DNA of 64,000 bases from Basidiobolus meristosporus CBS 931.73 (Eukaryota; Basidiobolomycota; Basidiobolomycetes; Basidiobolales; Basidiobolaceae), in assembly GCA_002104905.1 (NCBI GenBank), contig MCFE01000233.1, forward strand, positions 57,076 to 121,075. The letters run 5' to 3'. The translations under genes were made by a program, and so were the position numbers. The notes under the pieces were generated by a model. The model saw nothing but the letters and a program-made list of their open reading frames with translations. It searched no databases and had not been told where the DNA came from. This document shows positions 44,643 through 64,000 of the stretch, in pieces. How positions within the stretch are numbered: the first letter of the stretch is position 1; each line of letters starts with the position of its first letter.

Positions 44643-45098
44643 ATATCCTCTGCATAAATATCACCAGTGTTTATAGTAAGATGTCAATAAATGATCCTAT
44701 ATTCTACGCCCGCACCATTTGGCTCAATCTAGGCCAATTATGCTTATCTCGAGTTCTATCAAGGCTCAGAAGTTAGTTGTTTCGGGACCATACAGTAGAT
44801 AAACTCTGATATGATTGGCCTTTTATGGGAAACACTCTTACTGATATAGACTAAAGTGGAAGGAATAGTCGCATATGCATTCATAGATCAAGTATGCTAC
44901 TGTCCCCTCACCTGCATGGGAATCCAAAACAGGTTTTACTTAATAATTCTCAAACAATTGATATCAACATCTCCTCAATATATTCATTACACATTCTAGA
45001 AATATGGTAAAGTTTGAGGGGAAGTATAAGTTGCAAAGGGTGAGTCTGGATAATTGAGGGGCGTTTTAAAAAGTAGACCATCCCAGCTGTTAGTCCTT
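44643..45098. other. intergenic
   Basis: 3' flank of the small basic gene and promoter region of the chitosanase gene; nothing else recognised. Confidence 0.45.
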
Positions 45099-46094
45099 AT
45101 GTATTGCTACTACTTGATAATATGTCTTTTCATCATCACGGAGGCTCAAACAAGTAACTCATTGAATTTTCCGTTTTGCAAAAAGGAATACTCTCCCAGT
45201 AGAAAGAATTGCCTCCCTTTCAAAAAATATCATAGGAACCCGAAGAACGACCTGTCAAGCAAAAAGCTTGCGAACTGGAAATACGTTGGCTTCCGAAGCC
45301 AAAGAGTTCGGATTCTGGCTGAACAGATAGTCAATGTGTTTGAGCATGGTGAGACTGACTCGAACTATGACGCTTGTGAAGAGTTGATGGACCAAAGGGG
45401 GTATACTTGTGGCAAGGTCGGCTTTACAACCGGTACCAATGATGCCCTATTGGTAATTGAAAGGTATTCGAAGGCTCGAAAGAATAATTTACTTAATAAA
45501 TATCTACCAGAGTTGAGGAGAATATCCAAACTCCCATGGGATGGAAGCGGGGACCGTGGCGATACCTCCAGGTTGAGAGGTTATCCAGAAGCATGGAAGG
45601 CTGCATGCTGCACTGACAATAGATTTCTTAAGGCCCAGGATGAAGTTGAAGAAGAACTCTATTTAACCCCCGCACTGAAACTAGCTCACTGGCATAAAAT
45701 TACTTCGGAACTCGGTAAAGCGATATTCTTTGACACGGCGATACAACATGGCTGGGAAGCGGACGATGGAATTAGTCTCAACTCCATCATACGGCTAACA
45801 GGCCCAAGAAAGAACTTATCTGAGCATGTCTATCTTCAGAAGTTCTTGGACACCCGATGGAAGATGCTTTGCTGTACGCCAGATGACGTATGGCCAGAAT
45901 CTGCAGATAGAACGGCTGATTTAATGAGACTGGTGAAGAGTAAGAGCAATCTTAACCTCGAGAAGGAGGTGAAGTTGAAAATATATGGCCGGGTAGCAAC
46001 TGGAATTCTCCCCAAGAATCCGAAAAATTGCTCGATTCCACTACAATCATTAGTAGACCAAGGCAGCCAGTTGGACAAGTTGGTCTTATCTTGA
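45099..46094 (+). CDS. GH46 chitosanase, secreted
   Basis: Endo-acting enzyme that cleaves beta-1,4 bonds in chitosan, the deacetylated chitin of fungal walls. 331 aa, no introns. The ATG at 45099 opens a hydrophobic signal peptide (MYCYYLIICLFIITEA). The GH46 core follows: ILAEQIVNVFEHGETD, in which the Glu of FEHG aligns with the catalytic acid, then DQRGYTCGKVGFTTGTNDAL, in which the Asp aligns with the second catalytic residue. Further matches are NKYLPELRRI, FFDTAIQHG and LQKFLDTRWKML. Family members are mostly bacterial, with some in early fungi and chlorella viruses. The missing introns in an otherwise intron-rich window would fit past transfer from bacteria, but this cannot be proven here. 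Confidence 0.9.
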   Translation: MYCYYLIICLFIITEAQTSNSLNFPFCKKEYSPSRKNCLPFKKYHRNPKNDLSSKKLANWKYVGFRSQRVRILAEQIVNVFEHGETDSNYDACEELMDQRGYTCGKVGFTTGTNDALLVIERYSKARKNNLLNKYLPELRRISKLPWDGSGDRGDTSRLRGYPEAWKAACCTDNRFLKAQDEVEEELYLTPALKLAHWHKITSELGKAIFFDTAIQHGWEADDGISLNSIIRLTGPRKNLSEHVYLQKFLDTRWKMLCCTPDDVWPESADRTADLMRLVKSKSNLNLEKEVKLKIYGRVATGILPKNPKNCSIPLQSLVDQGSQLDKLVLS

Positions 46095-53737: not shown

Positions 53738-56105
53738 CTAAATGTTCATACTGACTAGTCCTAATTTTGACCTAAGATATTCAAACTTATCTCTAGCTAA
53801 TGGTTTGGTAAATATGTCTGCAATCATTTCATTTGTAGGACAGTAAGCTAAGCTAACTCAGTTATTCTCTATAGCTTCACAAATGAAATGATGTCTAATA
53901 TTTATGTGCTTGGTTCTAACATGAAAAGTTGGATTTCTACCTAATTGTATACATCCTGGATTATCTTGAAATAAAGTAATAGGCATTTTTTGACATAGGC
54001 CTAAATCTGTAAAAGTTTTCTTAACCACATTGCTTCTTTTGTAGCTTCATAGTCTGCCATATACTCTGCCTCTGTGGTGGAAAGTGCTACAGTTGGTTGC
54101 TTCCTTGAATTCCATGAAATTGCTCCTTTACAGTAAAGAAAGGTGTATCCTGTGGTGGATCTTCTGTCTTCAAAATTTTGTCCCCAATCAGTATTGGAGT
54201 ATCCCACAAGATCCTGTTCTGAATCCTTATAAGTGTATCTTAAGCAGATATCAGCAGTTCCTTTCAGGTATCTAAAAATCTGCTTAACTGCAGCAATATG
54301 ATCAGAGCCATAGTTCTGATTATGTTGGCTGACAACTCCCACTGAATATGAGATATCTGGACATGTTCCAAGCATGATATAAATCAGACTGCCAACCATG
54401 GATTGATAAGGAAAGTCAGGGCTCTCAGATGGCACCAAGCTCTCTTGATTTGGTTGAGTTTTGACCAAGTTAAGGTTTGTCTCCATTGGGGTAGCTGCAG
54501 GTTTACAGTCTTCCATATGGTACTTCTTTGGTATATCCTGAATATACTTGGATTGGCTTAGGGTGATAGTCTGAGTACTTCTGTCTATGTAGATCTTAAT
54601 CCCTAAGTAGTAACCAAGTTCTCCTAGATTGGACATCTTGAACTCCTTAGATAGGCTGGATTTAGTCTCTTCCAATGTTTCTAGGTTATTGGCAGCTATA
54701 ATAAGATCATCCACATATAGAGCTAATAGTACTGGATTTGCTCTATCTGGCTTATAGTATATACTATAGTCAGCATTACTCCTTTTGAAACTCAAAGATT
54801 CCAAATAAGAATCTATCTTGCAATTCCAGGCTCTTGGTGATTGTTTGAGACCATATAGTGACTTTTTAAGCTTGCAGACCAAATGGGGGTTATCTTGGTC
54901 AGCAAACCCATCAGGCTGGTCTATATACACATCTGCATCAAGTTCTCCATTCAAAAATGCAGTTTTTACATCCATTTGATGAATAAAAAACTTATATTTG
55001 GCTGCAATAGCAAATATTAATCTGATGGAATTAAACTTGGCTACCAGTACAAAAGTCTCAGTATAGTCAAGTCCTTTTGTTTGAGAGTATCCTTTGGCTA
55101 CAAGTCTTGCTTTGTATCTTTCAATTGTACCATCAGCCTTGTATTTCGTCTTGAAGACCCATCTGCATTCAATTGATTTTTGGTTGATTGACAATTTGAC
55201 TAAGTCCCAAGTTTGATTTTCCATCAGGGCCTGATATTCCTCAGTCATTGCAAATCTCCAAAACTTTGTCTGAGGGCTATTTAGGGCCTCTTTTACAGTC
55301 TGGGGTACATCAATATGGACTGCATAGGCATAAGCTAAGTTTGTACCCTCATTGATATGGTAATTTGGGCTATTTCTTGTCCAATTGGATCTCCGGGCAT
55401 TTAATACTGGAATGATCTCTTCTGGGATATTCCTGGGCACTGATCATGGCTGAACCATGGTTGTAGAGTTCTCTGGAGTGAAAAAATTCTCATTGTTTTG
55501 TTCTGATTCAATCCTGACAATTGGTGGATTTGAGAACAGATTTCCGTCATCATCTGATGTCATTTTTTGTGAAAATTTTAAATTATCATCAAACAACACA
55601 TCCCTGGACTTGATTAGCTTCTTTGCTTTGGTATTGTAGAGTCTGTATGCTTTACTCTCATTGCAGCAGCTCAAAAATATGCATTTGACACTTTTTGGCT
55701 CAAATTTTGACTGATTTCCGGGCAGTTTCTTGGCATATGCTGTACACCCAAATATTCTTAGATGTTCTGCACTTGGTCTAAGTCCATACCATGCTTCAAA
55801 TGGAGTAGAATCACAAAGTATTCTGCTATAATCCCTATTTTTAAGATATACAGCTGTGGCAACTGGATCCACCCAAAAATCATCAGATAATTTTTGATCA
55901 AGGATCATAGAGCTTGCCATATCAATTATTGATCTGTTAGCATGTTCTGGTACTCCATTTTGCTGCAGGGAGTATGGTACAGTAGTTGCTTGCTTTATCC
56001 CCTGAATTTTGCAGAAGTGGATGAAGAGTTTTGAGGTATATTCTCCATCATTGTCAGAGAGTATTTTCTGGATTTTTTCACCAGTTTCTCTCTCCACCAT
56101 GGCTT
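53738..56105 (-). pseudogene. Ty1/Copia polyprotein remnant (integrase, RT, RNase H)
   Basis: Reading right to left: the last part of integrase (LSDNDGEYTSKLF, then QQNGVPEHANRSIIDMASSM), then reverse transcriptase (CRWVFKTKYKADGTIERYKA, QMDVKTAFLNGELDADVYID and the catalytic ALYVDDLIIA), then RNase H (VALSTTEAEYMA). At least three defects: an in-frame TGA at 55441-55443, a frameshift near 54005 that creates the stop at 54001, and a TGA at 53858-53860; beyond them the correct frame continues to 53738. The 5' half (Gag, protease, most of integrase) is missing: the copy ends at about 56105 where LINE 3' sequence begins. Confidence 0.88.
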
Positions 56106-56229
56106 TAAGGGTCAGAGGAGATGATCATCACCAAAGGGTGAAATCTTTATTTAAATAATTAATAAAGAAGCCAAGTTTGAATATGAATATCTGAGATGCA
56201 GGAAGCCTACAAGATAAACTTGGACTTTG
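56106..56229 (-). mobile_element. LINE 3'-end scrap (L0)
   Basis: About 115 bp matching only the 3' terminal region of the LINE copies: the hairpin TCACC-AAAG-GGTGA, AATCTTTATT and AATAAAGAAGCCA. It carries no coding sequence. On the left it abuts the broken Copia through TTAAGGGTCAG, a possible degenerate telomere unit; on the right an LTR starts at 56230. Confidence 0.65.
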
Positions 56230-56676
56230 TGTTGTGCATCAACATTTAAAACTTTGCCAATTTTACTCCGTTTGAAAATCTAGTACCCTAACTGATTTTC
56301 CCTAACCCAAACATAACAAATCCCAGTTACAGTTTATTTGATCCCACCTCAGAATCTATTTTTAGCTATCACACCTGATCTATTTTCAAATGGTCATCAC
56401 GTTATCAACCTATCTGCCAAGCCTTCCCAGGTGATTAGTCATCTGAGATCTATCCAACCACTGTGCAGTTGCCAAGACATCAGTTGATTGATGATGTAAT
56501 TTTCATTTATCTTATGCACCTATGAACACCCAAATTGATTTCAATCAATCCAGTCCCTTGGCGCTTACTAATTCAACTTGATCAGAAAAGTATAAATAAA
56601 GTGTACTGAACCTTTTGGTTTAGTGTGTGTCTCAACGAAATTAAGATTCTGTCTCAGCAAAAATAAGAATCCAACA
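56230..56676 (+). repeat. LTR of a second LTR retroelement (plus strand)
   Basis: About 447 bp, bounded by TGTTGTGCATC and AGAATCCAACA, giving TGTTG/CAACA inverted ends. TATA-like GTATAAATAAAG lies at about 56588. The sequence differs from the Copia LTRs above. It precedes the Gag gene at 56967. The primer-binding site after it was not identified. Confidence 0.55.
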
Positions 56677-56966
56677 ATTCCGTTCTAGTTTCTATCCAAG
56701 CCTAGTATATCTAGCACTCCAAAGAACACCAAGCCTAGCCTGCCTAGCAAACAAATATCATTGCCTTTATAGCCAACCCAGCTATATCCAAGACCAATAT
56801 TAGATCAGAATCTTTCTGCTAATATTTCCGCCACTCTCTGACAATTCTAAGATTCTGCACTTAATTGTCCCTTTGGTTCAGTTAAACCATTCAAGAGTTT
56901 TATCACACTTTCTCTTGGATACAACATTTTTTTTGTTGAATTCCATTACATTCAGCCGATTAGAAG

Positions 56967-58106
56967 ATGTCCTCAGCAGCAAGCAATCCAAACCTTTCCA
57001 TGTTGGAAGAAGCCAGAAGAAATCAGGAAGAACTTACTGAACAGCTTGAAAACATCATGCTTGAAAGAAATACCATGATGATTGAGCACTCAAAGCTTGC
57101 CAAAACAAGATCTGATAATCACCGTAGAGATGAACTCCTTGAAGTTATATCCGGTTACCAAGATGAAATTGGAATAATTAAGGAAGCACTGGAGAATATT
57201 GCCATAGTAATTGACAGCATTGAAAATCCACCAAGCCTTGCTCTGCATCAGCCACCAAGAAGTCATGCCTTTGAATCCTCCAGATCTACATCTCCTTCTA
57301 GACCTGCCCTGGTGGTTGTCCCAAGATCCTTGCCTGTTTATGCTGAAGGCACCAATGCCATCAAGAATCCAACTGAGTTTCTTTACAAGTTTAGTCACGT
57401 CTTAGCTGCACACCAGCTAGACCCTGACACCAACTGGGCTAGACTTCTGCCTCTCTGTCTCACAATGCAAGATGCTGACTGGGTTGAAGTGAACATTCCT
57501 TCCAATAGTACGTGGAAAATTGCCCAAAACCTCTTTTGCAGCCATTTTGAAGATCCTCTCAAGAAAGCACATCTGAACTGCGACTTATGGAAAACTAAAA
57601 TGCAAAAAGGTGAATCTGTGCAACACTTCTGTGATAGATTCCAAAGACAAATGAGATTAGCTGGAGTTAGTGATGATAATCCATTGCTTACTGCTCATTT
57701 TCTTTCAAACTTTTCACACCAGCTACAGAGCAATATTGCTATTGTCAAAGCATGCAACCCTGCACGTACCTATGACCAGATCTCAGAGATATGTACACTG
57801 GCAATCACCTTGACTGCAGCTGTTAGCCAGACTTCAGGCAGCTCAACCCAATATCCCACAACAGCCGGAAAAGAGACCAGTCATGTGACCAAGAAGCAGT
57901 CAACTGCTACTAAGCACTGTGAGCTTCATGGAAAATGCTATCATTCTACCAGTGAATGCAAAGGCATCACCAAGCAGTCAAACAAGTCAGGAAACACCGC
58001 AGAAAAGCAGCAAAACACCAAAACTGATAATCCATATGCTGATGACAAGTGCTTTAAATGTGGAAATAGGGGACATAGATCACCTGCCTGTCCTGAAAAG
58101 GGTTAG
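56967..58106 (+). pseudogene. retrotransposon Gag (gypsy-like), cut by telomere sequence
   Basis: 379 codons: a coiled-coil N-terminus, a retrotransposon Gag core (LNCDLWKTKMQKGESVQHF, then CDRFQRQMRLAGV and LSNFSHQLQ), and a zinc knuckle CFKCGNRGHRSPAC (C-x2-C-x4-H-x4-C) at the very end. The pol genes that should follow are absent. The stop codon TAG at 58104-58106 comes from the sequence AGGGTTAGG, a telomere unit, so the reading frame was truncated by chromosome-end healing rather than ending naturally. The next base begins LINE L1. Confidence 0.85.
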
Positions 58107-58107
58107 G
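58099..58107 (+). repeat. relic telomere unit at the Gag/L1 junction
   Basis: AGGGTTAGG lies exactly between the truncated Gag and the 3' end of L1. Confidence 0.7.
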
Positions 58108-60327
58108 GGGAGACAGTCACCAACAGGTGAAATCTTTATTTCAGTTGAAACAAAGAAGCCAGCGCTACTGTTGTAGCTTTGATACAAGAGTGTGTAGCTG
58201 AGGGGAATTTGTAGGTAAGTTAATAAGAAGTGATGATAGTTCTTCAGTGCTCAAGACACTGTTCAGTGGGAAGGGGGGTAGCAAGAGAGGTAAGAATGAC
58301 TTGTGAACAACATTAATGAGGGGAATGTGATAAGGATTGATATTCATCATAAAGGGAGTGTGCTGCTGCAGATATTGCTGCCAAAGGTCTGTCAAGTACT
58401 TCAGGTAGGCCAGCTTGGGTTTTTCTGACTGCAGAATAAATTCAGCAAACTTCTTGACTTCAGGATCTCCAAGTATAGTTCTCCAGCAGGAGCCAGGTGT
58501 TGTGCGGTGTGTTCTCTTCCAGGCCTTAATCAGTGGGTTGCTGCAGTTGTGAAGTCTGAGTTATAATCTGGTTCTAAGGTAGAGAAGTCTGATCTTATAG
58601 GGCATAAACCCAAAAGCACCAAGAATAGCATGTCTGTAGGGGCATTCAGGCAAATGAGGCACCAAGGAGGTAATGCACCATACTGCAAACTTGTCAAGCT
58701 TAGTGCAGTCTCTGGAAGTAAGAGAGAGAAGTGGTAAGCCAAATTCCAGGACAGGGAAGACAAACTGCTTGAGTAGAAGGAGGCAGCTTGGAGCTGAAGT
58801 TGTAGGAGGAGTAACAGCCAGTAGCTTGTGGCGTGCCTGTCTTGCCAGGATAATTCTCTTCTTCAGGTGTGCTCCAGAGTCTAGTCCAGTAGGAAGGAAA
58901 GGAAAGCCAAGATATGTAGCAGAAACCTGAGCAGGTAGAGTGGAGTTCTCCAAGTTGATGGGAGAGCCCAAAGGTACTGTCTTTGCAATGGAAAGCTGGA
59001 GATTATTCTTCTGCAGATACTGGTGGATGGTCTGGGAGTCTTGTTGCACATTGGAGGAGGATATTCTGATGTCATCAGCAAAGAGAGTAACCAGGCAGTC
59101 AGCTGAGAGTCTTGGGAAATCATTCAGGAAGATGGCAAACAGTATAGGACCAAGCACAGAGCCTTGAACCACTCCATTAGGAACTGAGAACACAGCTGAT
59201 TGCTCGCTTGGGTGCAGAATTCTTGCTTGTGGATCCAGAAACAGAGACCTGACAAGGAGGGTGAGAGAGGTACTGGAGAAGCATTGCAACTTGGACCAAA
59301 GCAGATTTCTGTCAACTGAATCAAAGGCCTTAGTAATATCAAACAGAACAGAGGGATACTTGCACTGGAGAGAGTGATCTTGGCTAAGTATGACTGCATA
59401 TTCCAAGGAGAGGCCAGGAACAAAGCCAAACTGTGCAGGATGAAACTTGAGGGAGTCAGAGTAGAGCTCCTGAGCAAGCAGAAGCTCAAACACCTTTCTG
59501 CAGGTGGGCAGCAGAGATATTGGCCTGTAGGAGCTAGGATCCAGGTGCTTTCCTTTACCCTTGTACAGTGGCAGAACATTTGCAAAGGACCATTCCTCAG
59601 GAGTAGAAAGCTGGGCTGAGCATTGCTGAAACAGTGGAAGCAGAAGTGCAGACATGGCCTTGGTACTAGTCTTCAGAAGCTCATAGGAGATTGTGTCCAC
59701 ACCTGGAGCAGTATAGTTGGGAAGCCTCTTGAGCACATTATGGATTCTCCTTTGATCAAGTGCAAGTGGGATGGGCAGAGTCTTGAAGTCAGGATGAAAG
59801 CCAGGAGTTGAGTACTGCTTTGTAGAGAAGAAAATGTTAGCCAGCTGTTCTGTTGAAGGTAACTTCCTGGAAGAGGGCCTCATTGCCCTGTAGAGTCTTG
59901 ATACTGTTCTTGTTATAGAGTTGGAAGATTGCAGAGGCAAGGAACTCATAATATGATCCCAGAGCTGAGTATGCAGAGTGTGGTGAATTGCCTTGGAGTG
60001 GTGTATTGCTGTCAGGAGGAGTTTCTCTGTTTTTGGGTTAGGGAAACTCAGGTAGCTTTGTTGCAGGGCTGAAACAATGGATTCCCATTTTCTTGAGGTA
60101 ACAGCAGTAGTCTTGCATGGCAGTGAGAGGGAGGCTGAGACCAGAATCAGATGCTTCACAAAGAGCCAGGCATAGTTGAGATCATCTGGCAGAGAAAGTA
60201 GAAAGCTGGCAAGCTTCAAGTAGTTCCCAAAGTCTTTCTTCTGATTCTCGGTAGCTTTGTGGGTGAGCACAGTAAGTTTTGGCAGCTTCTTCTTCACAAC
60301 TGGTTGCATAGAAAGGGACCAGGCTTA
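58107..60327 (-). mobile_element. LINE copy L1 (5'-truncated non-LTR retrotransposon)
   Basis: The element strand is minus, so its 3' end lies on the left at 58107 and its 5' end on the right. The 3' terminus carries hairpins TCACC-AACA-GGTGA and CTTTATTTC/GAAACAAAG. The coding part is at 58165-60309; the endonuclease domain is missing. It differs substantially from L2 and L3 (roughly half of residues shared by eye). Confidence 0.85.
58165..60309 (-). pseudogene. L1 LINE reverse transcriptase ORF with one premature stop
   Basis: Reverse transcriptase of the APE-LINE type: KRLPNYTAPGVDTISYELL, LPLYKGKGKHLDPSSYRPIS, FDITKAFDSVDRNLLW, NGVVQGSVLGPILFAIFLND, the catalytic FADDIRIS and TYLGFP. Then comes the C-terminal region shared with L2 and L3. 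An in-frame TAA at 58561-58563 interrupts it just after LRTRL; the same frame then stays open to 58165 and still matches L3, so this is a single nonsense change. The N-terminal endonuclease was lost by 5' truncation. Confidence 0.88.
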
Positions 60328-61141
60328 TTAGGGGAGGGAAAGTCACCAAGTTGGTGAAATCTTTATTTGAGTTAAGAACTAATCTAAGTACAAATAAAGA
60401 AGCCAATTAAGAGGTCTAGAACCTCTCTAATAAGTAATCTAATCTATGTTTTGTTTCATCTTTAATGTGTGTTTCAATAAAGTAAAGCTCATCAGGGGTA
60501 AATATAAAATTCAGGGGTTTTGGGGGAAGTACAAATTGTAGATGTTTCTGATCAATATAATCCAAGACTGGAATCCAGCCTGGGATTAGGTGTAGTAGGA
60601 AAGGTGTGTGGACTTGTAAGTAGCTCTGCCACATAGATCTTAGATGGTCCTGAGCCAGTAGTCTTGGTTTCTCAGCTTTTTGAAGTTTTGAAGCAAGTTC
60701 TGTTACTACAGCAGAGCCAACCAGGGTGTGCCAGCAAGAAGATTTCAGGGAGGAGTTAGATTGAAGCCATTGTTTGATGGAGGGGTTATGTGATTTCTGA
60801 AGTTTGACTAGGAAGGAAGCCCGGAGATAGATCATTTGGATTTGGTATGGGTAGAACCCAAAGGCTCCATTAGTTGCATGGATATAGGGAGATACTGGAA
60901 GATAAGGTACCAAGGATCTGATACACTGATGGAGAAATTTATCCAGGCGGTGAAGTTCTCTGGAGGTAAGGGGTATAATGTGGAGACCAAATTCAAGTAC
61001 CGGCAGTACATACTGCTTCAGAAGTATAGGGATCTTTTGAATTGGAGTGTCTGGAGTGACTACTACCAGAAGCTTTTTGAGAGCCTGTTGGGCAAGATGG
61101 ATCCTATTATTCAGGTGGAGCTTTGTGTCAATCCCATGTTG
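60328..61141 (-). mobile_element. LINE copy L2 (short, 5'-truncated)
   Basis: About 810 bp, nearly identical to the 3' part of L3 over its whole length. The left end joins L1 through TTATTAGG. The right end breaks in the reverse transcriptase C-terminal region (after CATGTTG) and passes directly into telomere repeats at 61142. It has both 3' hairpins (TCACCAAGTTGGTGA; CTTTATTTG/CAAATAAAG). Confidence 0.9.
60416..61139 (-). pseudogene. L2 LINE ORF fragment, intact C-terminus
   Basis: Open without stops from the break at 61139 to 60416. It keeps the full C-terminal end (LNFIFTPDELYFIETHI to LDYLLERF), which L3 has lost through a 1-bp difference in a G run. Confidence 0.85.
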
Positions 61142-61160
61142 GGGTTAGGTTAGGGTTAGG
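61142..61160 (+). repeat. interstitial telomere tract
   Basis: GGGTTAGGTTAGGGTTAGG, including one shortened TTAGG unit, lies exactly between the 5' break of L2 and the 3' end of L3. It marks a former chromosome end. Confidence 0.92.
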
Positions 61161-63773
61161 GGAGGGAAAGTCACCAAGTTGGTGAAATCTTTATTTGAGT
61201 TAAGAACTAATCTAAGTACAAATAAAGAAGCCAATTAAGAGGTCTAGAACCTCTCTAATAAGTAATCTAATCTATGTTTTGTTTCATCTCTAATGTTTGT
61301 TTCAATAAAGTAAAGCTCATCAGGGGTAAATATAAAATTCAGGGGTTTTGGGGAAGTACAAATTGTAGATGTTTCTGATCAATATAATCCAAGACTGGAA
61401 CCCAGCCTGGGATTAGGTGTAGTAGGAAAGGTGTGTGGACTTGTAAGTAGCTCTGCCACATAGATCTTAGTTGGTCCTGAGCCAGTAGTCTTGGTTTCTC
61501 AGCTTTTTGAAGTTTTGAAGCAAGCTCTGTTACTACAGCAGAGCCAACCAGGGTGTGCCAGCAAGAAGATTTCAGGGAGGAGTTAGATTGAAGCCATTGT
61601 TTGATGGAGGGGTTATGTGATTTCTGAAGTTTGACTAGGAAGGAAGCCCGGAGATAGATCATTTGGATTTGGTATGGGTAGAACCCAAAGGCTCCATTAG
61701 TTGCATGGATATAGGGAGATACTGGAAGATAAGGTACCAAGGATCTGATACACTGATGGAGAAATTTATCCAGGTGGTGAAGTTCTCTGGAGGTAAGGGG
61801 TATAATGTGGAGACCAAATTCAAGTACCGGCAGTACATACTGCTTCAGAAGTATAGGGATCTTTTGAATTGGAGTGTCTGGAGTGACTACTACCAGAAGC
61901 TTTTTGAGAGCCTGTTGGGCAAGACAGATCCTATTATTCAGGTGGAGCTTTGTGTCAATCCCATGTTGACAAAACGGCAGACCTAGATATATTGCAGTTT
62001 GTTGTGGCAGAATGCTAGTGTTCTGTATAGTTGTAGTGCATCCAATTGGGACTGTCTTGGAAATTGAGAGTGAGAGGTTGTTGGCAGCCAAGTACTTCTC
62101 AATGATGGCAGTGTCTGCTATGTGATTAGGAGTAGCAATCTTGATATCATCTGCATAGAGAGTTAGTAGTGGATAGGGAGAGTCTGGTGAGGGGCCTTTT
62201 GGAAATAAAGGAAAGTCATGTAGGAATATCACAAATAATAAGGGACCTAGTACAGATCCTTGGACTACTCCATTTGGAACCTCATAAGTCTCTGATGTAC
62301 AACTTGGATGCAAAATTTTGGCTGAGTTCTCACAAAATAGAGAACGTACAAGAAGGGTCATTGGTAGTGTGGTAACTGCTAATAGCTTTCTCCAAAGCAG
62401 AGCTCTGTCCACAGAGTCAAAGGCTTTAGTAATGTCAAACAGAATGGTTGGCAATGAGAATTGAAGTGAATGATCATGGCTTAGCACTACAGCCATATCC
62501 AAGGAGAGTTTGGGCAAGAAGCCAAACTGAGAAGGATGGAATGGATATAGTTGAGATTGCAAGGATCTTGCTATTATAAGCTCAAAGATTTTCCGGCAGG
62601 TTGGTAGGAGTGAAACTGGCCGGTAAGAACCTGGGAGTGAGTGTTTCCCCTTCCCTTTGTATAAGGGTATTACATTTGCCTGTGACCAGGCCTTTGGGGT
62701 AGTCAATTGTTGGGCACAGATAGAGTAGAATGGGAGAAGTAAGTGACTCATTTTGGAGTAGCACACCCGGAGTAGATTGTAGGTAATCAAGTCATGTCCA
62801 GGTGCAGTATTTGCAGGAAGCTTCTTTAAAATTTTCTCCAGAAGCTTTGCTGAAACCACAATTGGAGATGTTGTACTGCCAGATATGTCACCAGTATGGT
62901 AGAAAGGAGGAGTGGGATGCACGGTTGAATCAAAGAATATAGGGGCCAGTTTGTCTGGTGATGGTATACTTCTTGCTTGGGGTCTCATGGCTTTGTATAC
63001 TCCTGATATGGACATTGTGGTGGCATTCATATTTACTAAGGGCAAGGTATCCATGATATGAGCCCATAATCTAGTATGCTCAGTGATCTGTAGTGACTTT
63101 GAGTAGGAGATTGCGCTTTCCAGGAGGTTCTGTGTTTTTGGGTTAGGGAAACATAGGTAGCTGGAATTTAAGGCAGAAATGATGGATTTCCATTTAAGTT
63201 GGTTTGCAGATGGCTTTTGGTAGGACTTGGTGGGCAGGGCCAGACAGCCAGTGATTATGATGAAATGCTGGTAAAATAGCCATAATGCATTTACATCATC
63301 ACAAATCCATGCAGGTAAGCTGGGAAATGCATATTCTGTAAGCAAGGATAGGTAGTTGGCAAAGTCCTGTGCCTGTGATACTGAAGCTTTGGCTGGCAGG
63401 ATTGTAAATGGCTGAAGAAGGGTGCCAATTGGTAGGGTTTTTCTGGCAGAAATGATAATATGTATTGGCTTGTGATCAGATTTCTCTAGTGAACCACAGC
63501 TGATATCCTCTGGAATGCTTGTAACCTGGTGGATGTACTGTAAGGCAGCTGGAGTGGCTGTTACCCAGTCAACACAACGTTGAGCTTGCTGAGTGTTTAC
63601 AGTGACCAGATGGTTTTGTCGTAGGAACTTTGTAAAGTGCTCCTCTCGGGTTCTAAGTCTGGATGAAATAGTGGTGATATTTTCAGGGTGGGGAATATTT
63701 TTATCTCCCACTACCATACAAGGGATTGATGAGCTGTTAATGAATTCTGATGTGGCCAAGAAAATTGCCAGTG
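61159..63773 (-). mobile_element. LINE copy L3, terminal element under the telomere
   Basis: About 2.6 kb. The 3' end with both hairpins is on the left next to the interstitial telomere; the 5' end on the right is truncated within the endonuclease and continues directly into TTAGGG repeats at 63774. It is the longest and least damaged copy. Confidence 0.92.
61339..63773 (-). pseudogene. L3 LINE polyprotein: APE endonuclease end plus reverse transcriptase
   Basis: About 810 codons open from the telomere junction; the upstream frame runs into CCCTAA repeats without a stop, so the start is missing. The N-terminal part shows the end of an APE-type endonuclease (CMVVGDKNIP, then EKSDHKPIHI). The reverse transcriptase follows: KLPANTAPGHDLITYNLL, IPLYKGKGKHSLPGSYRPVS, FDITKAFDSVDRALLW, NGVVQGSVLGPLLFVIFLHD, LYADDIKIA and YLGLPF. 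A G run of four at about 61350 (five in L2) shifts frame and gives an early stop at 61339. No gag-like ORF1 or zinc knuckle is present in this copy. Confidence 0.9.
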
Positions 63774-64000
63774 TTAGGGTTAGGGTTAGGGTTAGGGTTA
63801 GGGTTAGGGTTAGGGTTAGGGTTAGGGTTAGGGTTAGGGTTAGGGTTAGGGTTAGGGTTAGGGTTAGGGTTAGGGTTAGGGTTAGGGTTAGGGTTAGGGT
63901 TAGGGTTAGGGTTAGGGTTAGGGTTAGGGTTAGGGTTAGGGTTAGGGTTAGGGTTAGGGTTAGGGTTAGGGTTAGGGTTAGGGTTAGGGTTAGGGTTAGG
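63774..64000 (+). repeat. terminal telomere array (TTAGGG)n
   Basis: About 38 uninterrupted TTAGGG units, G-rich strand toward the right end, filling the window to its last base. The orientation shows that this is the right chromosome end. Confidence 0.98.

What the first reader, a model, noticed from the sequence alone, without database searches (positions are those of the whole stretch)
58099..64000. Tandem telomere-attached LINEs, each joined by its 3' end to TTAGG(G)
Seen: three LINE copies (L1, L2, L3) lie in tandem, all with the 3' end toward the centromere, and each 3' end directly follows telomere-type sequence (AGGGTTAGG at 58099, TTATTAGG at 60326, a 19-bp tract at 61142). The outermost copy is capped by the terminal array. 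Known: telomere-targeting LINEs exist (TRAS/SART in silkworm, HeT-A/TART in flies, MoTeR in Magnaporthe, Zepp in Chlorella). Inference: the G-strand 3' overhang primed cDNA synthesis, and telomerase capped each truncated 5' end, so the stack is a record of at least three chromosome-end events. An APE-type element doing this in a fungus appears unusual, since MoTeR uses a different endonuclease.
Basis: partly seen in the sequence, partly recalled or inferred. Interest (0 to 1): 0.9.

Follow-up and report, generated by a model that had tools for sequence, protein, structure and literature searches.

The report
Chromosome-end LINEs and SINE, Basidiobolus
In the fungus Basidiobolus meristosporus, many chromosome ends are stacked with hundreds of copies of jumping genes, including a short non-coding one, each attached by its tail to a very short piece of telomere repeat, which suggests that they grow onto chromosome ends while telomerase still caps them.

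Summary
The window is the end of a Basidiobolus meristosporus CBS 931.73 contig. Its three tandem LINE copies belong to two APE-type families. A 16-base 3'-tail motif shared by five element families occurs 1,705 times in the 89-Mb assembly. Of 165 listed tail copies that could be placed on contigs of 50 kb or more, 164 lie within 20 kb of a contig end, all with the 3' end inward. In 181 distinct 3' joins the telomeric tract is short (median 7 nt counted exactly, 12 nt counted leniently, longest 51) against 134-297 nt in 19 terminal caps. All 78 readable joins of an 80-locus sample differ, so they look like independent events. Best reading: addition to eroded or broken ends (HeT-A/MoTeR-like), then telomerase re-capping. 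Priming and endonuclease use are inferred. New variant of a known kind.

The parts
54001..56124 (-). Copia-type pol (RVT_2, integrase pieces), interrupted by a stop at 55443/55444 and broken at 56124
   Evidence: ORFs; RVT_2 E=1.1e-78, SH3_retrovirus E=5.2e-24, rve E=3.3e-5
56111..56230 (-). Remnant of a further LINE-type 3' tail (L6), same orientation, an inner layer of the stack; its own tract is degenerate (TTTAAGGGTC)
   Evidence: shares the two-hairpin tail
56231..56929 (+). Probable LTR (TGTTGT...ACAACA) inserted into the L6 tail
   Evidence: the same ~700 bp occurs by itself in L071:3371-4072 at 98.9%
56964..58106 (+). gag ORF of that LTR element, cut off at about 58100-58106 by the L1 3' join
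   Evidence: Retrotrans_gag E=3.2e-5; zf-CCHC E=8e-4, just under its cut-off
58100..58110 (+). Telomere-type join GGGTTAGGGGG between the broken gag and the L1 3' end
58111..60325 (-). L1: 5'-truncated copy of LINE family L1fam (RT; frame broken near its C-terminal part)
   Evidence: 98.6% protein identity over 587 aa to L070 ORF2
60326..60334 (+). Join TATTAGGGG between the truncated L1 and the L2 3' end
60335..61141 (-). L2: 0.8-kb 5'-truncated copy of family L3fam
   Evidence: 98.9% to L3 over 808 bp
61141..61162 (+). Join GGGGTTAGGTTAGGGTTAGGGG
61163..63772 (-). L3: outermost copy of L3fam, truncated inside the endonuclease domain
61163..61230 (-). 3' tail of L3: two hairpins (CUUUAUUUG..CAAAUAAAG and UCACC..GGUGA) then a C-run
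   Evidence: family tail (L3fam row is L009, the same contig)
63773..64000 (+). Terminal telomere array (38 perfect units) at the contig end
   Evidence: contig C462 ends at 121075 = window 64000

Best explanation
B. meristosporus carries a guild of chromosome-end retroelements: at least two APE-type LINE families (L1fam, L3fam), others known so far by their tails (L5, L6) or by a partial RT (L4), and a SINE-like element that bears the LINE tail. The LINE protein recognises an RNA 3' tail of two hairpins ending in a C-run. It acts at a chromosome end whose telomere is eroded or lost. The C-run, or a short CCCUAA extension of it, pairs with the few terminal G-strand bases, and the 3' OH of the chromosome primes cDNA synthesis, so the new copy is added with its 3' end inward. 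Synthesis usually stops early; telomerase then seeds TTAGGG on the truncated end and rebuilds a cap of about 200 nt. Repeated rounds make the stacks. Shown: location at contig ends, orientation, tract length, difference of the joins, tail sequence and its predicted structure, APE fold of a relative, presence of a telomerase gene. Inferred: end priming, RNA-DNA pairing, use of the LINE protein by the SINE, and whether the endonuclease is needed.
Against: The endonuclease keeps most hallmark residues, so nicking is possible; the one consistent change (E of the second motif reads D, LIDV) is of unknown effect. Counted leniently, 94 of 181 joins keep 12 nt or more of telomere-like sequence, enough for a SART-like endonuclease. 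The microhomology fits telomerase seeding followed by LINE attachment as well as RNA-templated TTAGGG, and the caps alone (n=13) show no clear excess. All positions come from one draft assembly in which repeats gather at contig ends; that every such contig ends in a telomere array was not checked, and telomeric contigs are oddly almost all right-handed. 22 of 183 joins have less than TA before the G-run. 10 of 20 sampled caps do not sit on a known family. No expression, activity or read data were available.
Confidence: 0.65

Rival explanations
1. TRAS/SART-like targeting: the APE endonuclease nicks TTAGGG repeats and the LINE inserts within the array by ordinary target-primed reverse transcription; inner repeats are short because the cut lies near the base of the array or because repeats are lost later.
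For: APE/TRAS1-type endonuclease fold; fixed register on the LINE side of the join (TTAGGGG then element); TTA before the G-run in 137/183; 94/181 joins keep 12 nt or more by the lenient count.
Against: SART1 needs about three upstream repeats, 12 bp (PMC7265360 passages); 152/181 joins keep under 12 nt by the exact count and 87/181 by the lenient one. A uniform cut in a 206-nt array would leave under 12 nt in about 6%, and no tract exceeds 51 nt. LINE copies are truncated at many places, while PMC4700185 (passage) says only full-length TRAS/SART are found at telomeres.
Confidence: 0.25
2. Subtelomeric recombination or break-induced replication copied a few old stacks to many ends; little recent retrotransposition.
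For: Known for MoTeR arrays (PMC7367193 passages); the 40 scored copies of each family are 98-100% alike.
Against: 78/78 sampled joins differ, with no near-duplicate flanks; truncation points are spread. Recombination would copy joins unchanged.
Confidence: 0.07
3. Passive accumulation: non-specific LINEs survive only at gene-poor subtelomeres, and the TTAGGG joins are microhomology with telomere debris.
For: 22 of 183 joins have almost no telomere sequence; LTR and copia elements also lie in the stacks.
Against: One orientation in 106/106 mapped LINE/SINE flanks, whereas flanks on the LTR element occur in both (4 minus; 2 plus, one of them the window itself); confinement to contig ends in the 165 places tested.
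Confidence: 0.03

Closest known systems
MoTeR1/MoTeR2 (Magnaporthe oryzae) and FoTeR (Fusarium oxysporum), CRE group
   Same: Fungal; 5' ends toward the chromosome end; head-to-tail stacks separated by short TTAGGG tracts; truncated copies re-capped; a short non-autonomous partner (MoTeR2) (PMC7367193 passages; PMC12857005 abstract and sections 3, 18, 19)
   Different: Those have a restriction-like endonuclease and form one group with Cnl1, SLACS and CRE; here the endonuclease is APE-type, there are several families with 1,705 shared tail motifs, and the partner has Pol III A/B boxes
TRAS and SART (silkworm), R1 clade
   Same: APE-type endonuclease; telomere sequence at the join; a telomerase gene still present; stem-loops in the 3' UTR (PMC4700185 and PMC7265360 passages)
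   Different: Here no poly(A) at the joins, short tracts, many truncated copies, and no C-terminal CCHC pattern in L3fam ORF2, in the L1fam C-terminus of L069, or in P0001-P0005
HeT-A/TART/TAHRE (Drosophila)
   Same: Stacks with every 3' end toward the centromere (PMC10088271 passage); addition to the chromosome end itself
   Different: Drosophila lacks telomerase and its elements end in poly(A); here a telomerase gene and TTAGGG caps remain and the join is a C-run in RNA sense
Stringent-type LINE/SINE pairs sharing a 3' tail (recalled; PMC4176376 seen only as a search listing)
   Same: The SINE ends in the tail of its partner LINE
   Different: Those insert across the genome (recalled); here both were seen only at contig ends

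Membership tests
CRE-group telomeric LINEs (MoTeR/FoTeR) | Restriction-like endonuclease instead of APE | tested here: not met
   APE-type domain at the N-terminus of L1fam ORF2 (Exo_endo_phos_2 E=2.6e-4, below the cut-off) and of relatives; no separate search for a restriction-like endonuclease was run
CRE-group telomeric LINEs (MoTeR/FoTeR) | 5' end toward chromosome end, 3' end on TTAGGG | tested here: met
CRE-group telomeric LINEs (MoTeR/FoTeR) | RT falls in the CRE clade | not tested
   no named reference RTs were at hand for a tree
TRAS/SART (R1 clade) | APE-type endonuclease | tested here: met
TRAS/SART (R1 clade) | C-terminal CCHC in ORF2 (recalled) | tested here: not met
   no CCHC pattern in L3fam ORF2 or P0001-P0005 or in the L1fam C-terminus L069:4257-5894; L070 ORF2 itself loses its C-terminus to a frameshift. 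L4 does have one
TRAS/SART (R1 clade) | Insertion inside arrays with about three repeats (12 bp) upstream | tested here: inconclusive
   under 12 telomeric nt in 152/181 joins by the exact count but in 87/181 by the lenient count; later loss not excluded
TRAS/SART (R1 clade) | RT falls in the R1 clade | not tested
   no named R1 RT at hand
HeT-A/TART type end-attaching elements | Copies with 3' end toward the centromere | tested here: met
   165/165 places, 106/106 flanks
HeT-A/TART type end-attaching elements | Oligo(A) at the 3' join | tested here: not met
   joins end in a G-run on the telomere-facing strand, a C-run in RNA sense
HeT-A/TART type end-attaching elements | Host without telomerase | tested here: not met
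   telomerase RNA-binding domain in two pieces over the cut-off (one piece holds a TAG, perhaps an intron; RT part not checked) and TTAGGG caps
SINE | Internal Pol III promoter (A and B box) | tested here: met
   one mismatch each to recalled consensus boxes, offsets 12 and 55 of the sense strand; 0 of 2000 shuffles; transcription not tested
SINE | 3' tail shared with a partner LINE | tested here: met
SINE | tRNA-, 7SL- or 5S-derived head by family model | tested here: inconclusive
   no ARAGORN tRNA in L072 and no Rfam match at E<=10 in L072, L084, L089; only D-arm-like and T-arm-like boxes remain

The most novel reading that the evidence does not exclude
A telomere-dedicated LINE/SINE partnership in which a Pol III-type non-coding RNA serves, like a second telomerase RNA, as a template copied onto eroded chromosome ends by LINE reverse transcriptase; the element RNA's C-rich 3' end writes the TTAGGG seed on which telomerase then rebuilds the cap, so the guild acts as a back-up end-maintenance system in a telomerase-positive fungus.
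Probability: 0.25. Interest if true: 0.88.

Novelty: new variant of a known kind. Interest (0 to 1): 0.76.

Why it matters
It adds an APE-type, multi-family case to telomeric retrotransposons, which in fungi appear in the papers seen here only as MoTeR and FoTeR of the CRE group. It adds a SINE-like element found at chromosome ends, for which the searches listed no precedent (most subscription papers are not held). Hundreds of joins in one genome make an open question testable: whether such LINEs nick telomere repeats or simply extend damaged ends, and how they share ends with telomerase.

Tried and rejected
Internal spread of the families: not seen in the 165 places tested of 300 listed; dropped before that count were 93 places on contigs of unknown length and 42 on contigs under 50 kb; the listings hold only the first 100 places of each search. 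Assembly artefact: rejected because 181 distinct joins share one layout. tRNA identity of the SINE head: ARAGORN and Rfam gave nothing in it. Finding another copy of the gag element to count untemplated bases at 58099: the exact 22-mer occurs once only (no mismatches allowed). Relatives in named organisms: five close relatives of ORF2, all on unnamed short contigs (only the ~8,000 candidates sharing most words were scored). Clade placement of the RT was not done for lack of named references. The VIA-align table lists mainly L1 ORF2p, R2, APE1/ExoIII, R1 and TRAS1 rows; no fungal telomeric element appears there, which says nothing against one. The cap sample holds only caps whose first repeat is not preceded by G, 20 of the first 23 places listed.

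Full report
WHAT THE WINDOW IS. The window is the right end of a 121,075-base contig (C462) of an 89.0-Mb, 1,311-contig genome. An RNA polymerase subunit in it is 100% identical to a protein of Basidiobolus meristosporus CBS 931.73 on a contig of that same length. L2 and L3 are one family, here L3fam; L1 is another, L1fam, about 49% identical in protein. Further in, a LINE-type tail remnant (L6) joined to a broken copia element, with a probable LTR element inserted in it, points to at least one older layer.

WHERE THE FAMILIES LIE. Of 474 and 737 candidates the tool scored 40 each; these 40 full-length matches to the two 3' ends were 98-100% identical to the window copies, plus one short weak match each. 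Exact 24-25-base tails number 645 (L1fam), 414 (SINE) and 176 (L3fam), with no match to the reversed patterns. The 16-base motif shared by five families occurs 1,705 times. Each search lists its first 100 places. Of the 300 places, contig length was known and at least 50 kb for 165. All 165 have the 3' end on the inner side, and 164 lie within 20 kb of the contig end (maximum 21.8 kb); 93 had unknown contig length and 42 lay on shorter contigs and were not counted. I did not check for each contig that it ends in a telomere array. A fourth LINE type with a different tail and a C-terminal CCHC (L4) has 16 exact tails; the 9 that can be judged fit the same rule. Of 20 caps sampled, 10 stand directly on L1fam, L3fam or SINE sequence and 10 on other or unidentified sequence.

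THE JOINS. One search read 183 distinct 3' joins: TTA before the G-run in 137, at least 21 telomeric nt before it in only 5, and less than TA in 22. With a slightly different cut, 181 joins have a median of 7 telomeric nt by exact matching, 152 have under 12 and 9 have 18 or more; an imperfect repeat ends that count, and seven joins with an altered G-run count as zero. A lenient count that lets imperfect repeats, stray bases and the whole G-run pass gives a median of 12, 87 under 12, 154 at 18 or less, 9 at 30 or more and a maximum of 51. Terminal arrays are 134-297 nt, median 206, n=19. By either count no inner tract is as long as the shortest cap. A cut at a uniformly random place in a 206-nt array would leave under 12 nt in about 6% of cases. 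A sample of 80 places, one per contig, taken from the lists, gave 78 readable joins, all different and with no near-duplicate flanks; the other two (L137, L167) had an altered tail and were left out. So most joins look like separate events. At 74 mapped breaks the broken end overlaps the telomere phase by 1.31 nt on average against 0.75 in a control (3 nt or more: 22% against 6%). Full-length SINE ends, joins with a G-run under 3 and joins with more than 3 nt of filler were left out there; caps alone (n=13) show no clear excess. G-run length depends on the family (L3fam 4 in 42 of 81; L1fam 6 in 25 of 64; SINE 5-6 in 24 of 32), so part of it probably comes from the element RNA.

THE SINE. Between many LINE joins lies a ~520-bp unit with its own copy of the tail. 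Of 18 copies with enough sequence, 14 are full length and begin at or close to the same 5' end. Its first 70 bases hold an A box and a B box with one mismatch each to recalled consensus; 0 of 2,000 shuffles did so. ARAGORN and Rfam find no tRNA in it, so I call it SINE-like with a tRNA-type promoter, not proven tRNA-derived. Its exact 34-base head occurs 203 times. Coding capacity was not tested.

THE SHARED TAIL. Six representatives of five families share GGCTTCTTT...AAATAAAGATTTCACC...GGTG. The predicted structure is two hairpins with 15 pairs, of which only one shows a two-sided compensatory change, so covariation support is slight. Folded singly, the L1fam and SINE tails beat shuffles (z -4.2 and -3.5), L6 less so (z -2.0); the piece of L3fam did not (z 0.04), its upstream arm having been cut off in that call.

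HOW IT PROBABLY WORKS. Orientation means that the first cDNA strand continues the G-rich strand outward, as when a chromosome 3' end is the primer. The short tracts argue that the acceptor end was almost free of repeats, or that the RNA wrote the TTAGGG. A telomerase gene is present (RNA-binding domain in two pieces at C880; its RT part was not checked), and TTAGGG arrays cap the ends. I therefore favour addition to eroded or broken ends followed by re-capping. The rival with most weight is TRAS/SART-like nicking of repeats, with short inner tracts for another reason.

WHAT IS KNOWN. I saw the abstract and sections 3, 18 and 19 of PMC12857005, and search passages of PMC7367193, PMC4700185, PMC10088271, PMC7265360 and PMC11105155; other papers only as listings. 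MoTeR arrays look the same in layout but the group uses another endonuclease. PMC10088271 (passages) puts telomeric LINEs in four clades, with MoTeR1 as the fungal one. Searches for Basidiobolus with telomere or retrotransposon, for telomeric LINEs in fungi and for telomeric SINEs listed nothing that by title or abstract describes this system; most subscription papers are not held.

Noticed in passing
whole genome G000: Telomeric arrays and tails are almost all on the plus strand, i.e. toward the right end of contigs (7428 against 81 24-mers; 108 against 3; tails 1555 against 150), an orientation bias of the assembly that I cannot explain; roughly 240 arrays are implied if a 206-nt array holds about 31 such 24-mers.
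   Followed up: no
L090 (C249:12081-12711): A telomere cap stands directly in a tRNA-Lys-like gene (match to model positions 8-63 only; the Lys label is my reading), beside a complete tRNA match at 281-353: a host end apparently healed without a LINE.
   Followed up: partly
L069:6097-7218 (-): L4, another LINE type with a C-terminal CCHC, cut in its RT by the telomere cap; its tail lacks the shared hairpin motif; 16 exact tails.
   Followed up: partly
L070:5617-6081 (-): L1fam carries a small extra ORF with a cysteine cluster (CPNCG...CKC) upstream of an ORF1 that gives weak coiled-coil-type Pfam hits.
   Followed up: no
SINE, sense positions 28-36: CCCTAACCC lies between the A and B boxes of the SINE, where a tRNA has its anticodon arm.
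   Followed up: no
window 45054-46091: ORF that resembles a GH46-type chitosanase (from recall, not searched).
   Followed up: no
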